In this document: positions 1,680-15,948 of the stretch, piece by piece
How the letters are laid out: every line of letters begins with the position of its first letter
Position numbering within the stretch: the stretch's first letter is position 1
IMG/VR virus record: IMGVR_UViG_3300035698_005633
Location: 1 to 42,326 of that record
Source of the DNA: a virus
Length of the DNA stretch: 42,326 nt
Direction: 5' to 3' (one strand)
Notes under the pieces: generated by a model
Databases searched by the model: none
The model's input: only the letters and a program-made list of their open reading frames with translations
What the model was told of the DNA's origin: nothing
Program-made: the position numbers and the translations under genes

Positions 1680-3524
1680 ATGAATATACCTATTTTCGGT
1701 AAAGATAACCCGTTTGCTAAATTTTTTAGATTTTCTAGATTGAATGATACTAATGTACAAGAAGAGAAGGAAAAGGCTAATAATAGTCGAGGTTATTCCC
1801 AAGAACAAATTGATTTTGGTTATGCGTCATTTATGAACTACGGTCAAAGTAATTCTGATAATTATGGTATGTCATCTATTAGTATACAGTTTGAACAATA
1901 TTTTAGATTAAAAGCTCAGAGAATTTTTAAGTATAGAGAGATGTCATATTATCCTGATATAAATGATGGATTAGATATGATATGTGATGAGGCTATGGTT
2001 GATGATAATAATGGCGAATATATGTCATTAAAGATAACAGAAGAAATCCCTGAGCATATAGAAGAAAAAATACGTGAGTATTGGGATTACCTTATTCATG
2101 AAGTTTTTGCTATAAATGAAACAGGATGGGAATTGTTTAGACGATGGTTAGTTGATTCTGAATTATATATAGAATTGGTATTGAATGATGATGGTGATAG
2201 TATAATTGATTTTAAAGTATTACCCGCCCATACTATGACACCTATTTATGATGCAACATCAGATATTTCAGGATTTGTTCAAACTCCTAGTGTTGTACCA
2301 GGTGTTGGTGATAGTGGTGTTGTTAGTTCTAATAACGATACCCAAGATCAAAATAATGGGTATAATAGTAATACTTATGGGGAAGATGAACAAGCTTCTG
2401 CCGAAGATAAAGAGATCTTATTTGATAAAGAACAGGTTCTATATGTCAATTATGGTGAGACAGGACGAAACAAGTTGGATGTTAGAGGCTTCTTAGAGTC
2501 TAATATACGCATATACAACCAATTAAAGTACCTAGAGGATGCTGTGGTTGTATATCGCATCGTTCGTGCTCCTGAGAGGCGCATATGGAACGTTGGGGTT
2601 GGTCGTATGCCTAAAGGTAAAGCAGAACAATATATCCGTGGTCTTATTCAGCGATATAGAAAAAATGTTTATTATGATCCCGCTACAGGTGCTATGGATT
2701 CATCAAAAAATTTCCAAGCAATGACCGAAGATTTTTGGTTTGCTAAAGATGAAAATGGTGAGGGTACAACAGTTGACACATTAGCTGGTGGACAAAATCT
2801 TGGTGAAATGGATGATATTTATTATTTCGAACGAAAACTTCACCAAAATATGAAAATACCTCGTAATAGATGGGGTGCTGGTAGTGGTGATGAAGTTTCT
2901 GATGTTTATTCATCAGGTAAGGGTGGAGAAATAACTCGTGAGGAAATAAAATTTTCTAGATTTGTTCATAGATTACAAAAGAGATTTAGTTCAGTATTTA
3001 TGGACGCATTTATGACACTTCTTAGACTCCAAGGTGTTGATGACAGATATGTCGATGAATCTATATTTAAAATTGATTTTACTCAATCAAATCTTTGGCA
3101 ACAATATAAAGAGCTTGAAGTTCTTGAAGCCCGTTTTGGTATTCTTGGTGCTATAGAAACATATATCTATAAACCTGAAGAAAATGAAAATGCCCCATTC
3201 TCTATGGAATTTGTTTTGAGAAATTGGTTCTTAATGAATGACGATGAATTTGATGAGAATAAAGACTATCTTGATAAAGAAAAAGAAGCCGCTCGATTAG
3301 CTAGAGAAGATGTCGGATTTGATTCTGATGGAGAAGGCGAAGAGGGTGAAGAAGAATTTGGTGGTGAAGAAGCTGGTGGTGAAGAAGGTGGATTTGGTTT
3401 CGGCGGAGAAGACGCTGGCGGTATGGATGCTGGTGATGGATTTGGTGGAGCGGAAGCTGATGCTGTTGGTGGGGAAGAGTTTGGTGCCGCCGAAGGTGAT
3501 GCGGGCGAATTTGATATGGGATAA
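1680..3524 (+). CDS. gp20: portal vertex protein (T4 gp20-like)
   Basis: 614 residues. GTG 1674 is in frame, but ATG 1680 is spaced 7 bases from GGAG and is preferred. This is the dodecameric portal at the unique head vertex that nucleates head assembly and acts as the DNA channel for terminase and neck. Family signs are the early YYPDINDGLDMICDEAMV segment and, centrally, NQLKYLEDAVVVYRIVRAPE followed by R-x-W-x-VGVGRMPKGKAEQY and a Y-x-K-x-VYYDPATG stretch, which closely follow gp20 of T4-like phages. It is longer than T4 gp20 (about 524 aa). The extra part is a tail from about residue 543 built almost wholly of Glu, Asp, Gly and Ala. It sits directly upstream of protease, scaffold and capsid genes, as expected. 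Confidence 0.95.
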   Translation: MNIPIFGKDNPFAKFFRFSRLNDTNVQEEKEKANNSRGYSQEQIDFGYASFMNYGQSNSDNYGMSSISIQFEQYFRLKAQRIFKYREMSYYPDINDGLDMICDEAMVDDNNGEYMSLKITEEIPEHIEEKIREYWDYLIHEVFAINETGWELFRRWLVDSELYIELVLNDDGDSIIDFKVLPAHTMTPIYDATSDISGFVQTPSVVPGVGDSGVVSSNNDTQDQNNGYNSNTYGEDEQASAEDKEILFDKEQVLYVNYGETGRNKLDVRGFLESNIRIYNQLKYLEDAVVVYRIVRAPERRIWNVGVGRMPKGKAEQYIRGLIQRYRKNVYYDPATGAMDSSKNFQAMTEDFWFAKDENGEGTTVDTLAGGQNLGEMDDIYYFERKLHQNMKIPRNRWGAGSGDEVSDVYSSGKGGEITREEIKFSRFVHRLQKRFSSVFMDAFMTLLRLQGVDDRYVDESIFKIDFTQSNLWQQYKELEVLEARFGILGAIETYIYKPEENENAPFSMEFVLRNWFLMNDDEFDENKDYLDKEKEAARLAREDVGFDSDGEGEEGEEEFGGEEAGGEEGGFGFGGEDAGGMDAGDGFGGAEADAVGGEEFGAAEGDAGEFDMG

Positions 3525-3544
3525 CCCATAATTTAAGTAAAAAG

Positions 3545-3552
3545 TATAAATA
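3545..3552 (+). promoter_or_regulatory. T4-type late promoter box TATAAATA
   Basis: Exact TATAAATA in the 59-base gap after the portal gene, 32 bases before the ATG of the 54-residue ORF. It would provide late transcription of that ORF and gp21. Confidence 0.7.
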
Positions 3553-3583
3553 CTATTGATTTGTAATATATAGGAGGATTAAT

Positions 3584-3748
3584 ATGGGATCAGTAATGGA
3601 AATGATTTTGGATAGTGATTGGGTTGAGTTAGGTAAATATACTGAACAGCAAGCTGCCGACAAAATTAAAGAAAAAATAGGTGCTAAAAAGTCTGAAATC
3701 GTGGCGGCTATGAATGCTGGATATGATTCAGACGATGTGACACCGTAA
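3584..3748 (+). CDS. small hypothetical protein between portal and protease (54 aa)
   Basis: A 54-residue ORF, ATG 3584 to TAA 3748, with a strong TAGGAGG site 8-9 bases upstream and its own late promoter box. The protein begins MGSVMEMILDSDWVEL and has a helical middle rich in Lys, Glu and Gln (YTEQQAADKIKEKIGAKKSE), ending in an acidic tail (YDSDDVTP). T4 has the small prohead-core genes 67 and 68 at this place between 20 and 21, so a small core protein is possible by position. I see no convincing sequence match. The strong ribosome site makes it a likely real gene. Confidence 0.7.
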   Translation: MGSVMEMILDSDWVELGKYTEQQAADKIKEKIGAKKSEIVAAMNAGYDSDDVTP

Positions 3749-9357: not shown

Positions 9358-10212
9358 ATGATAAAATATTACTATCCTAGAACAGTAAAAGCTATAACTG
9401 TAGCTCTTCTCGATATGTTCAATGATATTAAAGTTGTTAAATATGATAAATATGATAATATCGTTGGTGAAAGAGATGTGCCAATAACTTTTGGTCCTGT
9501 CGAGAAATATCACCAAGATAGAACTGAGGATCATTATTTTGACTCCAATAATGTCGAACATAATAATAGATATTATTTACAAATACCTAGAATAGCTTTA
9601 ATACCTAATGCTATTGTTTATGACCCTGAAAGAGCTTCAGGTGTTAATGAGTGGCGTTATTGGTTTAAAGAAACTTTCGAGTTAAATGAAACGCAATTGG
9701 ATGATATTGTTTCTGATTATCAACCGACACCATATAATTTTAATTTCACAATTTATGTGAAGAATGATTCTATGGATTATCTTTCGCAAATTTTAGAAAA
9801 CATATTACCATATTTTAATCCAACATTAATGCTTAGAGTAAAAGAATTTTCTTTTCTTAATGTCGAACGCGATATTCCTGTGACTCTTGATGGTGTTAGT
9901 TATGATTTTATAGATGACGAGACTGCAACAGACACACGATTTGTTAATGCGACTATGAATTTAACTGTTAAAGGTTATATGTATAGACCATTTATTAGTT
10001 CTAAAGTTATTAAACATATTGATAGTCAATATTTGGATTATAACACAAGTAAAGTATTAGAGGGATTTCAAACTTCGGGTGTACAAACATCTGCGGGTAT
10101 ACCTATAATAACAAGTGCTGTACCGACTAGTGGATCATTTTCTACGAGTGGGTATATAAGTACATATGGTAAGGAATTTGATTGGTATAAAGCACCAATG
10201 ACTATAAATTGA
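9358..10212 (+). CDS. gp15: tail terminator / sheath stabiliser (T4 gp15-like)
   Basis: 284 residues, ATG 9358. T4 gp15 is a hexamer at the top of the tail that caps the tube and sheath and binds the neck. The match is visible along the whole chain: YYYPRTVKAITVALLDMFND at the start, then DVPITFGPVEKYHQ, the LQIPRIALIPNAIVYD strand, a YQPTPYNFNFTIYVKN segment, then SQILENILPYFNPTLMLRV and RDIPVTLDGVSYD, and finally a GYMYRPF strand. These follow the gp15 order (NPSPIKM, QIVEQILPYFQPH and GWMYPP in T4). The C-terminal 50 residues are Ser/Thr/Gly-rich and look disordered. It sits before the terminase genes, as in T4 (15-16-17). Confidence 0.88.
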   Translation: MIKYYYPRTVKAITVALLDMFNDIKVVKYDKYDNIVGERDVPITFGPVEKYHQDRTEDHYFDSNNVEHNNRYYLQIPRIALIPNAIVYDPERASGVNEWRYWFKETFELNETQLDDIVSDYQPTPYNFNFTIYVKNDSMDYLSQILENILPYFNPTLMLRVKEFSFLNVERDIPVTLDGVSYDFIDDETATDTRFVNATMNLTVKGYMYRPFISSKVIKHIDSQYLDYNTSKVLEGFQTSGVQTSAGIPIITSAVPTSGSFSTSGYISTYGKEFDWYKAPMTIN

Positions 10213-10219
10213 GGTTAGT

Positions 10220-10837
10220 ATGTCTGATGATTTAACATATAAAGAATTAAATACCACATTTCATAGCATTAGTAATGCTTTGGATACAGTATTTATTGAA
10301 GAAGCTAGTATAGAAGATATCGACGAACAAATCAAAAAAGATTTTTCTAGTGTGATTGGCGATAAGGATCTTAAAAAAGAATCTAATGAGTTGATGACTA
10401 ACATTAAAAATGAAGTTGATATTATAGATGTTAAACGCGAAGAATTGTCTAATGCTATAACAACAGCAAGAATAAAAGATGCTGATTTCTTAGAAACTGA
10501 AATCAAATCTTTGATACTATCTAGTAAATCCGTCTTACAGACGCTTGAGCGTGATATTAAGGTTGGGGCACCCCCTCGTATGTATGAGGTGTATGCAACG
10601 CTCTTAAACGCTATTACAGGGCAATATAAAGAGCTTAGACAACTCAATGAAGCAATTGCTAAGTTTGTTATTGAAAATAAAAAACAAAATCTCGACGAAA
10701 CTAAAGAAGTTCATAAAGTTATGATGTCATCCACTGACGCATTGGATATGTATATGGCGGCTAAAAATGGCAGTCAAATGGACGTTATAGAAACTGACTT
10801 TTCGTTGGTTGATGAGGAATATAATAAAGACTCGTAA
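10220..10837 (+). CDS. gp16: small terminase subunit (T4 gp16-like)
   Basis: 205 residues, ATG 10220, 8 bases after gp15. The small terminase recognises DNA and stimulates the ATPase of gp17. The chain is nearly all helical: an N-terminal helical part rich in Asp, Glu and Lys, then a central antiparallel coiled-coil pattern, and a conserved-looking KVGAPPRMYEVYATLLNAI segment followed by KELRQLNEAI, which resembles small terminases of T4-like cyanophages. It is somewhat longer than T4 gp16 (164 aa). Position between gp15 and gp17 gives most of the confidence, because this family diverges quickly. Its stop codon lies inside the terminator hairpin that follows. Confidence 0.82.
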   Translation: MSDDLTYKELNTTFHSISNALDTVFIEEASIEDIDEQIKKDFSSVIGDKDLKKESNELMTNIKNEVDIIDVKREELSNAITTARIKDADFLETEIKSLILSSKSVLQTLERDIKVGAPPRMYEVYATLLNAITGQYKELRQLNEAIAKFVIENKKQNLDETKEVHKVMMSSTDALDMYMAAKNGSQMDVIETDFSLVDEEYNKDS

Positions 10838-10861
10838 TACTGTATGTGTTGCGAGTTTTTT
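10830..10861 (+). terminator. intrinsic terminator between gp16 and the broken terminase gene
   Basis: ACTCGTAATAC (10830-10840) pairs with GTGTTGCGAGT (10846-10856) over eleven pairs, two of them G-U, with a five-base loop, followed by T to 10861. It includes the gp16 stop codon. It would reduce read-through into the N-terminal terminase gene, which has no late box of its own. Confidence 0.75.
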
Positions 10862-10875
10862 AATTGGAGGTATAT

Positions 10876-11235
10876 ATGTATTTCGGAAAACCTAATTTAA
10901 GAGGTGAGGGTGAAACATACGAATTTACTAACGATAGATTGGAAGAATATTTTAAGTGCGCCGAGGATATTGTTTATTTTGCGGAAAAATATTATTACAT
11001 AGTAAATATCGATGAGGGTAAACATAAAATAAACTTATATGATTTTCAAAAAAAATCATTAAAAGTTTTTTGTTCGGATAGTGTTGATGGGAAGAAAAAT
11101 ACTATTATATTGATGCCGAGACAAATGGGCAAGTGTCTTTGTGGGGACACATTCATAAAAATTAAAAATCGTAAGACGGGGGAAATCAACGAGTTATCAA
11201 TATTAGAATTTTACGAGTTGTCGAAAAATGCTTAA
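10876..11235 (+). CDS. gp17: large terminase N-terminal part fused to N-intein (gp17-N::IntN)
   Basis: 119 residues, ATG 10876 (TTG 10864 is in frame but overlaps the GGAGG site, so it is rejected). Residues 1-86 are the N-extein: start of the packaging ATPase, with the adenine-binding LYDFQKKSL segment and a truncated Walker A, MPRQMGK. T4 gp17 has SRQLGKTT here. After the Walker lysine the frame enters an intein at Cys87: CLCGDTFIKI is a typical block A with nucleophile Cys. Only 33 intein residues follow before TAA. The rest of the terminase begins at 12635, in another gene. By itself this product cannot pack DNA; protein trans-splicing with the product of 12290-13906 would restore the GK-TT junction. 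Confidence 0.93.
   Translation: MYFGKPNLRGEGETYEFTNDRLEEYFKCAEDIVYFAEKYYYIVNIDEGKHKINLYDFQKKSLKVFCSDSVDGKKNTIILMPRQMGKCLCGDTFIKIKNRKTGEINELSILEFYELSKNA
11134..11232 (+). other. split intein, N-terminal half (IntN, 33 aa)
   Basis: Starts with Cys at the GK/C junction; block A motif CLCGDTFI. At 33 residues it is much shorter than the roughly 100-residue N-halves of DnaE-type split inteins and close to the atypically split terminase inteins of environmental phages (AceL-TerL type, about 25 residues as I recall). Confidence 0.9.
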
Positions 11236-11270
11236 TGGCTAATCATGTAGGCAAGTTTATTTTGAAAATA

Positions 11271-11278
11271 TATAAATA
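11271..11278 (+). promoter_or_regulatory. late promoter box TATAAATA before the homing endonuclease
   Basis: Exact TATAAATA in the 78-base gap after the N-terminal terminase gene, 43 bases before ATG 11314. It could give the endonuclease and the C-terminal terminase gene their own late transcript. Confidence 0.65.
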
Positions 11279-11313
11279 TATTTATAGTTGATATTAATAT
11301 GATTGGGGTATTT

Positions 11314-12288
11314 ATGGAATTATTTGGTTGTAATATTTGTGGAAAAGAATTTAAAAATAGTAGTACTCTTAAACATCACACACGAGAGTTGCATTCAGAA
11401 ACTCTAAAATATGTATGCGAGATTTGTGGTACTCGGTACGAAAGTATTGGTGGGTTGCAGAGACATTTGACATCAACCCACGGTTATGATGGGATATTGC
11501 GACAGAAATATTACGATAAATATATAAAATCTGCCAATGAGGGAAATTGTAAATATTGTGGTAAACGATTAAATTTGGTTAAAGGTCGATTTAGTGAAGG
11601 GTATATGAAATTTTGTCATAATACTAAATGTAATGTGTTGTGGCATAACAAGAATTCTGATAGATTGATGAAAGCGTCTATAGGAATTAAAAACTCTATA
11701 GAATCTCATCCAGAAAAATTGAATTCTAAGATAGAATATTGGTTGGCTAAGGGGTATACCCAAGATGTTGCAGAAAAAATGCTTTCAGAACGACAAACGA
11801 CATTCAGTAAAGATATATGTATTGAAAAATATGGCGAAGAAAAGGGGTTGGCTGTTTGGAAAGAACGGCAAGATAAATGGGGGTCAACTATGGACTCTAA
11901 GCCCGAAGAAGAAAAAAATAGAATAAATAGATTAAAAGCGTTTAGTAGTGGATGTATATCTGCATCAGAAAGAGAATTATGCGAAACATTGGGTATTAAC
12001 CCACAACTATGTATTTCGTCTGATATTGGATATGTTTATGATATGTATGAGGATAATAAAATAATTGAATATAATGGTGATTATTGGCATTGCAATCCTA
12101 ATAAATATAATGGTGATTTTTATAATAAAAGTATAAAAATGACGGCTAGTGATAAGTGGGAATATGATGCGTGTAAAATATCATATGCTATAGATAATGG
12201 ATACGATGTTTTGGTTATTTGGGAATTCGATTACAAAAAAGACAAAGATAAAGTTATTCAAGAATGTTTAGAATTTTTGCGGAGTTGA
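11314..12288 (+). CDS. free-standing homing endonuclease, zinc fingers plus Vsr-like nuclease
   Basis: 324 residues. ATG 11299 is in frame, but ATG 11314 follows TGGGGT at good spacing and starts directly before the first zinc finger. Two C2H2 fingers are clear: Cys6/Cys9/His22/His27 and Cys35/Cys38/His51/His56. A third Cys4-like knuckle uses Cys79/Cys82/Cys101/Cys106. The middle has an EKYGEEKGLAVWKERQDKW repeat-type segment seen in phage endonucleases. The C-terminal domain has IIEYNGDYWHCNP (Glu252, Asn254, His259) and a later VLVIWEFDY strand, the core of the Vsr/EDxHD nuclease fold. Such enzymes are known to sit between halves of split-intein genes. It probably cuts intein-free terminase alleles to spread the locus. 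The stop is 1 base before the next ATG. Confidence 0.88.
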   Translation: MELFGCNICGKEFKNSSTLKHHTRELHSETLKYVCEICGTRYESIGGLQRHLTSTHGYDGILRQKYYDKYIKSANEGNCKYCGKRLNLVKGRFSEGYMKFCHNTKCNVLWHNKNSDRLMKASIGIKNSIESHPEKLNSKIEYWLAKGYTQDVAEKMLSERQTTFSKDICIEKYGEEKGLAVWKERQDKWGSTMDSKPEEEKNRINRLKAFSSGCISASERELCETLGINPQLCISSDIGYVYDMYEDNKIIEYNGDYWHCNPNKYNGDFYNKSIKMTASDKWEYDACKISYAIDNGYDVLVIWEFDYKKDKDKVIQECLEFLRS

Positions 12289-12289
12289 T

Positions 12290-12634
12290 ATGGGGAAAAT
12301 AATTGAGTCGTATGATGTCAACGATTGGGATGTATTGAGTGATGATGGTTGGCACCCTATAACACAAGTACATAAAACTATAAAATATGATGTTTGGGAA
12401 CTATTAACAGATACCCACAAATTGATGTGTGCTGATGAGCATATATTAATAGACGATAATCATAATGAAGTGTATGCTGAGGATTTAAAAATAGGGGACA
12501 AACTTATCACTGATATTGGGGTGGAACGAGTATTGTCTATAAAAAAATTAGATATTGACCCTGAGCACATGTATGACATTTCTATTGATTCTGATGATCA
12601 CACATTATTCACGGACGGAATTTTATCTCACAAC
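12290..12634 (+). other. split intein, C-terminal half (IntC, 115 aa)
   Basis: Ends in His-Asn followed by Thr as +1 extein residue, the expected chemistry. Block B has Cys-Ala-Asp-Glu-His in place of the usual Thr-x-x-His, as also seen, from memory, in AceL-type terminase inteins. No endonuclease domain lies inside the two halves (148 residues in all). Confidence 0.9.
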
Positions 12635-13906
12635 ACAACTATGTCAGCGGTATTTTTATTACATTATATATTATTTAATAAAGATAAAGTTGTCGCAATT
12701 CTAGCTAATAAAGAAAAAGCCGCACAAGAAGTTTTGAGGCGTATTAAAGCCGCATTTGCTATGATGCCATTATGGATGCAACAAGGTATTGTTAAGTGGA
12801 ATGAGACATCGATAGAATTAGAAAATGGTGTTAGGTTGATAGCAGCAACAACATCTTCAGATTCTATTTCAGGTGAAACTGTATCATTACTATATTTGGA
12901 TGAGTTTGCTAAAGTTAAACCACACGTTGCTGACGAGTTTATTACCGCAACACTTCCTGTAGTATCATCAGGTAAAACATCTAAAGTTATAATAGTTTCA
13001 ACGCCGCTGGGAATGAACCATTTCTACCACTATTGGAAGGGCGCGACAGAGGTAGATGCCGAACTTGCTAACAACTTTTATCCTATTAAGGTTAATTGGT
13101 GGGATCACCCTGATAGAGATGAGGCATGGAAGAAAGAAGTATTAAAAACCTTTAATAATTCTAAGACTAAATTTAATCAGGAGTATGGAAACCGTTTCTT
13201 GGGTAGTTCTGACACACTCATAGATCCTGATGTATTGGAACGAATTTTAACACGTCAACCAACAGATACTAAATGGAATGGATTATTTAGCATCTACGAA
13301 GCCCCTGAAGAGGGTGTAATGTATATTATGGGTGTTGATACCGCTAAAGGTACTGGACGCGACTACAGCGTTATACAGGTGTTAAGAATAGATGGCGAAA
13401 AGAATATAAAACAAGTTGCTATATATCGAAATAATATGATATCACCTCATGACTTTTCACAAGTTTGTATTGGTGTATCAAAATATTATAATGATAGTAT
13501 GATGATGATAGAAAATAATGATATTGGTTCTTCTGTAGCCGATACTATTTGGTATGAATACGAGTATGATAATATAGTTAATATCGATCCGAAAGGATTA
13601 GGTATCAGGGCTACGAAAAAAAGCAAATTACAGGCTAACATGTTACTTAAAAGATATATTGATGATGGGTATTTGAGATTAGTTGATGAACCAACTATAA
13701 CAGAGCTTTCAAAATATATCGAAGTTAGACCTAATGTTTTTCAGGCTGAGACGCGAACATCACACGATGACTGCGTAACTTCGTTATTATGGGCGTTGTT
13801 TTTTATAAGTACAGATTTTTTTGATAATGATAATTTAGAGGTAAAAATCTTAGATGATAAGTACGATCTTACAAATAGTGGACCTATCATGTTTTTACCT
13901 GATTAA
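12290..13906 (+). CDS. gp17: C-intein fused to large terminase ATPase/nuclease (IntC::gp17-C)
   Basis: 538 residues, ATG 12290 with GGAG five bases upstream. Residues 1-115 are the C-intein, with block B-like CADEH (47-51) and a C-terminal GILSHN; splicing would join at Thr116. The remaining 423 residues are gp17: TTMSAVFLLHYILFNKDK completes Walker A, LLYLDEFA is Walker B plus catalytic Glu (Asp204, Glu205), and VIIVSTPLG is the coupling motif. The nuclease domain follows, with GVDTAKGTGRDYS (Asp350), MIENNDIG and SHDDCV (Asp493, Asp494). All key residues are present. The spliced terminase would be about 509 residues. It pumps DNA into the prohead through the portal and cuts concatemers. Confidence 0.95.
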   Translation: MGKIIESYDVNDWDVLSDDGWHPITQVHKTIKYDVWELLTDTHKLMCADEHILIDDNHNEVYAEDLKIGDKLITDIGVERVLSIKKLDIDPEHMYDISIDSDDHTLFTDGILSHNTTMSAVFLLHYILFNKDKVVAILANKEKAAQEVLRRIKAAFAMMPLWMQQGIVKWNETSIELENGVRLIAATTSSDSISGETVSLLYLDEFAKVKPHVADEFITATLPVVSSGKTSKVIIVSTPLGMNHFYHYWKGATEVDAELANNFYPIKVNWWDHPDRDEAWKKEVLKTFNNSKTKFNQEYGNRFLGSSDTLIDPDVLERILTRQPTDTKWNGLFSIYEAPEEGVMYIMGVDTAKGTGRDYSVIQVLRIDGEKNIKQVAIYRNNMISPHDFSQVCIGVSKYYNDSMMMIENNDIGSSVADTIWYEYEYDNIVNIDPKGLGIRATKKSKLQANMLLKRYIDDGYLRLVDEPTITELSKYIEVRPNVFQAETRTSHDDCVTSLLWALFFISTDFFDNDNLEVKILDDKYDLTNSGPIMFLPD

Positions 13907-13910
13907 AATA

Positions 13911-13918
13911 TATAAATA
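13911..13918 (+). promoter_or_regulatory. T4-type late promoter box TATAAATA
   Basis: Exact TATAAATA just after the terminase stop, 39 bases before the tail sheath ATG. Confidence 0.75.
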
Positions 13919-13956
13919 CTAAGGTAAGTTAGATTTATATTAATTAAGGAGGATAT

Positions 13957-15948
13957 ATGGCAGGTGGATATTCAGCTCCTGGTGTATACCGTAAAGAGAT
14001 TGACCTAAGCGAAATTTTAGTCGCTGGTGGTATATCTAATGGCGGTGTCGTTTTAAGAGCAAGAAAAGGACCAGTAAGTAGACCAGTTCTAGTTACTAGT
14101 GATAAAGAATTTATAGATACTTTCGGTGAGCCATATTTTGTTAGTGGTACTTCCCTAACAACTGAAGCGGGATCATTAACACCCGAATTGGGGTATGGTT
14201 CGTATGCGGCTTTACAATTTTTATCGGAATCTAATAGATTATACGTTTTCAGAGCATATGATGACGGATTAACATCAGACGATACTTATGGGTATGTTAA
14301 TGTTACATCTGGCGGTGTCGCGTCAGTTCCTGCAACGGGATTAATCCCAACAGCAGTATCAGAATTAGATGTTTTTGATACAAGAACAAGAATAGAGCGA
14401 TACGAAGCATATAACAGAACAGATCAAACAGATCCATTAATTATTGGTGCTGTAGGTCCTGGTGCGGATAATGATAATATTGCTGTTACTGTAGAAACGT
14501 TAAATCCGTATTCAGAATGGTTATATCAATATGATGAGTACCCAACTAGTGGTGTTGCTACATCAGCAGCTAATGCTGTGACAGATATAGTTTATACAGC
14601 GAAAGATACTTCAGCCACATTAAATGCTAAAGTTGCTGATATGTGGGTTACGGCTCAAGGTGGTAGTACGACATTAGTACAACAATATTTACCTGTTGCT
14701 AGTAGTGTTGTTAAAGTTTCAGTTTATAAAAAATCGGAAGATACTACTTGGGAAGATTTATATAGTGATGATACTGACAGATCTAGAAGTATTTTAAGAA
14801 TAGCTCCATTAGAAACATTTTATGGCTCATTATCACACAAAAAAGATTCGGATGGTAATGATTTATTCATAGAAACAGTTATTAATGGTAATTCTCAATA
14901 TGTATATATTAAATCATTATTAAGAGCTAACATAGGTCTTGATTCATGTTGGGATTTTGGTGGGATCAGTGCTACAACACCTACTTGGTATGATAATGGT
15001 GGATCATATGTAAAATTCACAGAAAATACTTATGACGCACAATTTTCAACATTAAGTGGTGGTAGTTTTGCACAAAAAACTGGTGCAGATGCTAGTGATG
15101 CAGATTTTTGGGGATTATTTGATAATAGAGATGAGCTTCCTGTTCAGATTCTTATCAATCCAAACTCTGATACTACTCATAAGTTAGAAGCTGCTAAACT
15201 GTGTGCTAAGAGACGTGACTGTATTGTTGCTAATCAAGTTGGTTCGATTACGGATAAAACTGTTGAGAAGGTATTAGAAGCCGAATCATATGGTTATCCT
15301 AATGCGTCATTTGTGGCTCTTTATTCAGGTTATTCTAAAGTGTATGATAAATATAATGATAGAGAGGTATTTCTTCCTAATTCTATTTATGGTGCGTCAT
15401 TAATGGCTAGAGGGGATACTATTGCAGATCCTTGGAATGCTCCTGCTGGTGTTGCTCGTGCAACTATGGCGGTACTTGATCAGAATAAACTTTTCAGTCA
15501 AGATCAAATTGGTAGATTGTACGATAAAAATATTAATTCTGTTAAATATGTTCAAGGTGCTGGATTCGCAATGTGGGGTCAAAAAACTGCACAGCTCAAA
15601 AAATCAGCTCTTGATAGAATAAATGTTAGAAGAACTATTATTTATATACAAACAAATATCGAACGCGCTCTTAATAGTTTTCTTTTTGAAAACAATACAG
15701 CTCAAACGAGACTTAGAGTATTTTCGATTGTTGATGAATTTTTATTAGGAATTAAAGCTAATCAAGGTTTGTATGATTATAAAGTTGTTGTTGATGAAAC
15801 TAATAATACTTCGGTAGTTATTGATTCTAATCAAATGAATGTGGATATTTATCTTCAGCCTGTTAAGACAGCGGAATTTATTCAATTCACTACAGTGGTT
15901 ACACGAACTGGGACAAGTTTCAGTGATGTGACTCTCAAATATGCTTAA
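13957..15948 (+). CDS. gp18: tail sheath protein (T4 gp18-like)
   Basis: 663 residues (T4 gp18 is 659), ATG 13957 with AAGGAGG. It forms the contractile sheath around the tube. The N-terminus (SAPGVYRKEIDLSEILVAGG, then GPVSRPVLVTSDKEFIDTFG and YAALQFLSESNRLYVFRAYD) follows the gp18 pattern of a Pro-Gly start, GPA-like loop and FGxP segment. The central part (about residues 85-350) is variable, Ser/Thr-rich and probably the surface-exposed protease-resistant domains. The C-terminal third (NIERALNSFLFENNTAQTR, then VDIYLQPVKTAEFIQFTTVV) is the conserved polymerising core. It is flanked by a late promoter and a very strong terminator, so it is likely a single-gene, high-level transcript. Confidence 0.96.
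   Translation: MAGGYSAPGVYRKEIDLSEILVAGGISNGGVVLRARKGPVSRPVLVTSDKEFIDTFGEPYFVSGTSLTTEAGSLTPELGYGSYAALQFLSESNRLYVFRAYDDGLTSDDTYGYVNVTSGGVASVPATGLIPTAVSELDVFDTRTRIERYEAYNRTDQTDPLIIGAVGPGADNDNIAVTVETLNPYSEWLYQYDEYPTSGVATSAANAVTDIVYTAKDTSATLNAKVADMWVTAQGGSTTLVQQYLPVASSVVKVSVYKKSEDTTWEDLYSDDTDRSRSILRIAPLETFYGSLSHKKDSDGNDLFIETVINGNSQYVYIKSLLRANIGLDSCWDFGGISATTPTWYDNGGSYVKFTENTYDAQFSTLSGGSFAQKTGADASDADFWGLFDNRDELPVQILINPNSDTTHKLEAAKLCAKRRDCIVANQVGSITDKTVEKVLEAESYGYPNASFVALYSGYSKVYDKYNDREVFLPNSIYGASLMARGDTIADPWNAPAGVARATMAVLDQNKLFSQDQIGRLYDKNINSVKYVQGAGFAMWGQKTAQLKKSALDRINVRRTIIYIQTNIERALNSFLFENNTAQTRLRVFSIVDEFLLGIKANQGLYDYKVVVDETNNTSVVIDSNQMNVDIYLQPVKTAEFIQFTTVVTRTGTSFSDVTLKYA

What the first reader, a model, noticed from the sequence alone, without database searches (positions are those of the whole stretch)
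11314..12288. Homing endonuclease with two C2H2 fingers, one Cys4 knuckle and a Vsr-like catalytic core
Tandem eukaryote-looking C2H2 fingers joined to an IIEYNGDYWH nuclease core is a rare domain mix. The fingers probably give sequence specificity for the intein-free terminase allele. The gene has its own late box and could mobilise both intein halves as one unit.
Basis: partly seen in the sequence, partly recalled or inferred. Interest (0 to 1): 0.7.

Follow-up and report, generated by a model that had tools for sequence, protein, structure and literature searches.

The report
Zinc-finger nuclease inside split terminase intein
A virus of bacteria carries its DNA-packaging motor gene in two pieces joined at the protein level, and between the pieces lies a zinc-finger DNA-cutting enzyme that probably copies the whole insertion into related viruses; the arrangement is of a known kind, but the zinc-finger guidance and its evolution are worth following.

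Summary
ORF 11314-12288 (324 aa) has two C2H2 fingers (Pfam E 9e-10), a Cys4 knuckle and a C-terminal domain whose AlphaFold model matches Vsr (Z 10.9) and the homing endonuclease I-Bth0305I (Z 9.7). It lies between the halves of TerL, each carrying half of an atypically split intein inserted at Walker A (GK|TT). This is a 'fractured gene' with an EDxHD/Vsr-type homing endonuclease: a known kind. The domain mix is not rare in the family: 31 of 73 full-length members have a C2H2 motif. Of 77 non-redundant members, 76 lie between intein halves, in TerL, gp46, gp41, gp44 and another ATPase. L116 keeps fingers and target but has another nuclease core. L098 lost the nuclease, leaving a 3' relic, while the split intein stays; L096 has an empty site. 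A T4-type late box precedes the nuclease in 28 of 76 loci (3.3 expected). Cleavage and homing are untested.

The parts
10876..11133 (+). TerL N-extein, ending at Walker A ...PRQMGK
   Evidence: PHROG terminase hits 1.1e-14; intact homologue L096 reads ARQSGK|TT
11134..11235 (+). IntN, 33 aa (CLCGDTF...SKNA) plus stop
   Evidence: aligns with the first block of contiguous inteins at the same site in L014 and L016
11271..11278 (+). T4-type late promoter box TATAAATA
   Evidence: 43 nt before ATG 11314, other boxes in the window lie 35-53 nt before ORFs; box upstream of HEN in 28 of 76 loci, shuffle mean 3.3
11314..12288 (+). homing endonuclease (HEN) gene, 324 aa
11329..11394 (+). C2H2 finger 1 (CNICGKEFKNSSTLKHHTRELH)
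   Evidence: Pfam PF00096; model residues 1-62 match tandem C2H2 2dlq, Z 4.5
11416..11481 (+). C2H2 finger 2 (CEICGTRYESIGGLQRHLTSTH)
   Evidence: Pfam PF13894; a finger of some relatives is ROS/MUCR-like
11548..11631 (+). Cys4 knuckle CKYC...C....C
   Evidence: four Cys invariant in three sequences; similar Cys4 patterns in gp41-associated relatives
11728..11880 (+). conserved middle module KIEYWL...KERQDKW
   Evidence: near-invariant residues across 46 relatives; no Pfam hit here
11950..12285 (+). Vsr-like nuclease core with IIEYNGDYWH
   Evidence: 1cw0 Z 10.9, 3hrl 10.1, 3r3p 9.7; 3r3p is the top PDB profile hit, E 0.014
12290..12634 (+). IntC, 115 aa, ends ILSHN
   Evidence: PT-HINT 5.7e-5, below its cut-off; TIGR01443 intein_Cterm 17.5 bits against cut-off 15.6
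12635..13906 (+). TerL C-extein (TTMSAVF...)
   Evidence: Terminase_6N 6.1e-19, Terminase_6C 3.8e-11

Best explanation
The gene is an EDxHD/Vsr-type homing endonuclease sitting in a 'fractured' terminase gene. It is made from a late promoter. Its N-terminal part (two C2H2 fingers, Cys4 knuckle), probably with the middle module, binds the Walker-A coding region of an intein-free terL, and the Vsr-like core makes the break. Repair from the intein-bearing genome copies IntN, the nuclease gene and IntC together. The two TerL halves are then joined by protein trans-splicing, so packaging is not harmed. Shown: the domains, the arrangement, the conserved site, empty and nuclease-less relatives, tracking of target by the N-part, the late box. 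Inferred: binding, cutting, homing, trans-splicing.
For: Arrangement N-extein+IntN / HEN / IntC+C-extein in the window and in L001, L002, L005, L006, L116 and others. IntC followed by a C-extein of at least 30 aa found for 70 of 77 non-redundant HENs; of the 7 others, 6 show part of the intein at a contig end or on the other strand, 1 (Cr30) has none. Vsr and I-Bth0305I fold match. N-part similarity predicts target: AUC 0.82 (largest of 200 shuffles 0.55), core 0.50; on 25 representatives 0.83 (0.72) against 0.47. L116: N-part 64% over 184 aa, core 30% over 100 aa, its core 64% like L061. Empty site L096; HEN relic in L098, 32.5 bits, best of 1000 shuffles 5.0. NG86 dN/dS 0.09-0.36 in 9 of 10 HEN pairs tried. 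Late box.
Against: No cleavage, binding or homing data. L098/L099 keep the split intein without the enzyme, so the enzyme is dispensable to the phage. Cr30 carries a relative (36% identity) beside an intein-free TerL, so some members may act elsewhere. 15 of 38 full-length TerL-associated HENs have no C2H2 motif, so fingers are not the only way to reach this target. The tenth pair for dN/dS (L075/L077) gave 0.46 but differs too little to tell.
Confidence: 0.8

Rival explanations
1. The nuclease is a passenger that no longer homes; it is kept only because the split intein around it cannot easily rejoin, and it is on the way to loss.
For: L098/L099 lost it and L098 shows a 3' relic while the split intein stays.
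Against: The window copy has an intact core and intact zinc ligands. dN/dS 0.09-0.36 in nine pairs of relatives (the window itself has no close relative to test, and against L003 synonymous sites are near saturation). A late box is maintained upstream in many loci.
Confidence: 0.12
2. It is a free-standing homing endonuclease that spreads by intronless homing in the terminase region with a cut site other than the intein site.
For: Cr30 relative lies between gp16 and an intein-free TerL. Free-standing T4 enzymes differ from intron enzymes in where they cut relative to their own insertion (PMC2988022, passages); collaborative homing exists (PMC10448857, passages).
Against: 76 of 77 members lie inside a split intein, and N-part similarity follows the interrupted gene.
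Confidence: 0.06
3. It is a packaging-associated nuclease recruited by the phage, as proposed for the HNH protein of HK97.
For: It sits in the terminase operon; the HK97 case is told in PMC10448857 (passage).
Against: Relatives sit in replication and recombination genes gp46, gp41 and gp44 too.
Confidence: 0.02

Closest known systems
Fractured genes: split inteins around a free-standing Vsr-like endonuclease (Dassa et al. 2009, not held; known here through citing papers)
   Same: Gene in two ORFs, each with half an intein, a separate endonuclease ORF between (arrangement partly recalled); a citing paper names this HEG domain EDxHD/Vsr (PMC12350094, passages)
   Different: Here the split is near the intein's N end (33-aa IntN), the target is TerL Walker A, and the DNA-binding part has tandem C2H2 fingers; whether the 2009 paper already notes fingers could not be checked
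I-Bth0305I, EDxHD homing endonuclease (PDB 3r3p)
   Same: Catalytic-domain fold: Z 9.7, 91 residues, 2.8 A
   Different: Treated among group I intron endonucleases (PMC3943268, passages); no finger tandem known to me there; sequence similarity is weak (E 0.014)
Aeromonas phage Aes123 PolB and Tenacibaculum phage PTm1 PolB loci
   Same: Annotated split PolB with intein parts and a 'VSR endonuclease' between; weak but real similarity to the window core, E 5e-7 and 4e-6
   Different: Other target gene; similarity confined to about residues 255-328 of the 329-aa query
AceL TerL and GOS TerL atypically split inteins
   Same: Naturally split TerL inteins with short IntN, split after the first helix (PMC13014065, passages)
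   Different: Whether they enclose an endonuclease gene was not seen in what I read
I-TevI and other intron endonucleases of T4
   Same: Middle or late promoters inside early/middle units; I-TevI late promoter (PMC2988022, passages)
   Different: Group I intron and GIY-YIG core; no Rfam intron here

Membership tests
EDxHD/Vsr homing endonucleases | Vsr-like catalytic fold | tested here: met
   AlphaFold model pLDDT 87.7; 1cw0 Z 10.9, 3r3p Z 9.7, 1vsr Z 9.3
EDxHD/Vsr homing endonucleases | E-D-x-H-D active-site residues | tested here: inconclusive
   D39, E48, G51 and H55 of A4 are invariant and D81 near-invariant in 45 sequences; the residue-by-residue assignment to the named motif is recalled, and the 3r3p chain shows A where our core has H
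EDxHD/Vsr homing endonucleases | Site-specific cleavage and mobility | not testable with these tools
   needs bench work
Fractured-gene split intein locus | N-extein+IntN ORF, endonuclease ORF, IntC+C-extein ORF in this order | tested here: met
   same in 76 of 77 members as far as contigs reach (one with the nuclease on the other strand)
Fractured-gene split intein locus | Intein splice-junction residues (Cys1, HN, +1 nucleophile) | tested here: met
   GK|C...HN|TT in the window; same in contiguous inteins L014, L016
Fractured-gene split intein locus | Trans-splicing | not testable with these tools
   needs bench work
C2H2 zinc finger | Pfam zf-C2H2 curated cut-off | tested here: met
   38.9 bits against 25.2, two stretches
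ROS/MUCR zinc finger | Pfam PF05443 match | tested here: not met
   no match up to E 0.01 in the window protein, though 14 of 46 family members match
Intron-encoded endonuclease | Group I or II intron around the gene | tested here: not met
   no Rfam match at gathering threshold in 10000-14500; intein halves explain the interruption

The most novel reading that the evidence does not exclude
One modular family of P-loop-hunting mobile elements: a common nuclease core is given different N-terminal DNA-binding cassettes (C2H2 tandems, Cys4 knuckles, or helical repeats), each aimed at the Walker-A codons of a different phage ATPase, with cores exchanged in nature under a fixed cassette (window/L116). 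In many members a late promoter is written into the intein's own codons (ATA AAT AC in 21 of 21 'INT' IntNs), about 8 nt from the surviving half of the homing site, so that bound enzyme could shut off its own gene as I-TevI does.
Probability: 0.3. Interest if true: 0.72.

Novelty: new variant of a known kind. Interest (0 to 1): 0.5.

Why it matters
If the N-terminal part sets the target and the core is exchangeable, this is a natural counterpart of engineered zinc-finger nucleases, with dozens of paired sequences and known target genes from which finger-to-DNA rules in phages could be learned. The series intein-free (L096), full element (window, L116), nuclease lost with relic (L098) shows three states expected of a homing cycle in related terminases. 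The embedded late box makes a testable claim about how a selfish gene inside an early gene gets late expression.

Tried and rejected
Group I/II intron: no Rfam match. Special RNA structure upstream of the HEN (hiding of its ribosome site, as recalled for T4 enzymes): none, z 0.83, 154 of 200 shuffles fold at least as well. Defence-system protein: only a chance PADLOC match, E 0.27. Direct sequence link to a solved Vsr by the single protein or by profile A2: mainly zinc fingers were found; the core profile A4 put 3r3p first at E 0.014, so the claim rests on the fold. Assembly artefact: rejected, the same interruption occurs in independent contigs. A strict link 'fingers = TerL' is rejected: 15 of 38 full-length TerL HENs have no C2H2 motif and 5 of 11 gp41 HENs have one.

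Limits. The 80 loci are the best of 424 relatives and were ranked by likeness to the window, so family proportions are biased. The AUC test used 68 HENs: those under 280 aa, those without a target label, and L007, L011, L012 and Cr30 were left out; L116, found later, was added. gp46 members are related, but the result holds without them (0.78 against 0.49) and on 25 representatives. The core tree is of quick quality with 27 of 67 branches open. The 200-nt late-box count includes near relatives by descent; four control regions gave 5 of 77, 0 of 74, 2 of 74 and 5 of 72. 'Not in print' is not claimed: searches showed no listed title on C2H2-Vsr homing endonucleases, but Dassa 2009 and Taylor 2011 were not read.

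Full report
What is there. The window is a T4-like structural gene cluster. gp17, the large terminase subunit (TerL), is in two ORFs. The first ends with Walker A ...PRQMGK followed by a 33-aa intein N-fragment; the second starts with a 115-aa intein C-fragment ending ILSHN, then TTMSAVF... and the rest of TerL. Between them lies the reported ORF. The stop of the nuclease (12288) and the start of IntC (12290) are adjacent, so translation is probably coupled (sequence; inference).

The protein. The first 56 residues hold two C2H2 fingers above Pfam's cut-off. Residues 79-106 hold four cysteines, invariant in window, L003 and L001. Residues 139-189 are a conserved middle module. Residues 213-324 form the nuclease core. 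An AlphaFold model on 46 relatives has mean pLDDT 87.7 (pTM 0.48, so domain arrangement is uncertain). The core matches E. coli Vsr (1cw0, Z 10.9, 105 residues), 3hrl (10.1) and the catalytic domain of I-Bth0305I (3r3p, 9.7). Foldseek gave 3r3p at probability 1.00 but E only 6.7e-3. Part of the wider family also matches Pfam MTES_1575 (22 of 46 at E 0.01 or better) and ROS_MUCR (14 of 46); zf-C2H2 itself is hit in 8 of 46.

Relatives and their places. Two scans of viral contigs gave, with the window and Cr30, 77 non-redundant HENs. IntC plus at least 30 aa of C-extein follows in 70: 39 TerL, 16 gp46/SbcC-like, 11 gp41/helicase-like, 3 gp44-like, 1 other ATPase (gene names from sequence motifs and clustering, not each scanned by Pfam). 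Of the remaining seven, L003 and L010 end inside the HEN with IntN present, L028, L037 and L048 end in or just after IntC, L079 has the HEN on the opposite strand between the two TerL halves, and Caulobacter phage Cr30 has the HEN beside an intein-free TerL. The insertion is at GK|[TS] of the P-loop nearly throughout; L023 and L064 lie three residues upstream. The same arrangement is in a contig binned as Nitrosarchaeum (L101). Contiguous inteins without a nuclease sit at the same TerL site in Vibrio phage SD25 and Klebsiella phage Magnus, with extra linker residues at the place where the window intein is split.

States of the element. Among the closest terminases, L096 is intein-free (58% identity, GK|TT intact). 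L098/L099 keep the split intein but have only about 97 bases between the halves. These bases read, in frame and up to a stop, as the last residues of the HEN...HIKESDYNNNKEEVIERCLKFING, 32.5 bits to the family profile against 5.0 for the best of 1000 shuffles (read in L098). So the nuclease was deleted and the split intein persists.

Which part sets the target. I cut 68 HENs into N-part (before residue 139), middle and core. N-part similarity separates same-target from other pairs with AUC 0.82 (largest of 200 label shuffles 0.55); middle 0.58 (0.59), core 0.50 (0.58). With close pairs dropped: 0.80, 0.55 and 0.45; 25 representatives: 0.83, 0.58 and 0.47; without gp46: 0.78, 0.50 and 0.49. The nearest HEN by N-part shares the target in 63 of 68, by middle in 47, by core in 45. 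Natural swap: L116, same site, TerL-C 67% identical, shares 64% of 184 N-terminal residues with the window but only 30% over 100 aa in the core; the L116 core is 64% like L061. On a tree of the core, the target label needs 12 changes (shuffled mean 26.4) and C2H2 presence 13, so the core does carry some target signal at the level of close clades. All this supports, but does not prove, that the finger-bearing part gives specificity; a general likeness among fingers may add to the AUC.

Expression. TATAAATA occurs 26 times in the window (15.0 expected, largest shuffle 24), one at 11271. Within 200 nt upstream of the HEN start it occurs in 28 of 76 loci (shuffle mean 3.3, max 8); controls gave 5/77, 0/74, 2/74 and 5/72. 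In many relatives it lies inside IntN: of 42 IntNs found by pattern, 21 carry 'INT', all 21 spelled ATA AAT AC., 16 with the full box against 3.2 expected by codon use; the chance of ATA in all 21 is 1e-8 by codon use, ignoring relatedness. T4 intron endonucleases likewise have middle or late promoters inside early or middle units (PMC2988022, passages).

Known or new. Split inteins around a Vsr-type endonuclease are known (Dassa 2009, cited in PMC12350094, PMC3653736 and PMC6892783, passages read; annotated in Aes123 and PTm1), and domain shuffling of phage homing endonucleases is known (PMC8263062, passages). New here, as far as I could see: tandem C2H2 fingers as the DNA-binding part in a TerL fractured gene, the target-tracking N-part, the window/L116 core swap, the L098 relic and the embedded late box. 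I rate it a new variant of a known kind.

Noticed in passing
L098 and L099, 1208-4714: TerL is split twice: the Walker-A split intein without nuclease, and a second split intein after NQEYN whose own nuclease ORF (2659-3660) has a C2H2-like finger and knuckle but an HNH-looking core (Pfam DUF7487); the finger cassette seems shared between nuclease types.
   Followed up: partly
L097 310-3270: TerL with Walker-A IntC plus a contiguous maxi-intein with a LAGLIDADG_3 domain at a second site.
   Followed up: partly
L079 3347-4570: Nuclease gene lies in the opposite orientation between the two split TerL halves.
   Followed up: yes
L013 4923-7641 (Cr30): Relative of the nuclease lies directly upstream of an intein-free TerL; either a relic of intein loss or a free-standing form.
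   Followed up: partly
L002 3167-4462: TerL C-half is interrupted again by another intein-like start (RGKS|CLTGDTRV) followed by a GIY-YIG-like ORF.
   Followed up: no
L015 1102-3216 (Vibrio phage vB_VmeM-32): TerL carries a second, contiguous intein near the Walker B region (YVDE|C...HN|CAF); the same phage has a split uvsX annotated with a HintC part.
   Followed up: no
L001 2030-3040 and 9569-10396: Two further nuclease-like ORFs (a repeat-rich one and a GIY-YIG-like one) in the same structural cluster.
   Followed up: no
window, whole: TATAAATA is biased to the + strand (21 of 26) and sits 35-53 nt before several structural ORFs, as T4 late promoters do.
   Followed up: partly
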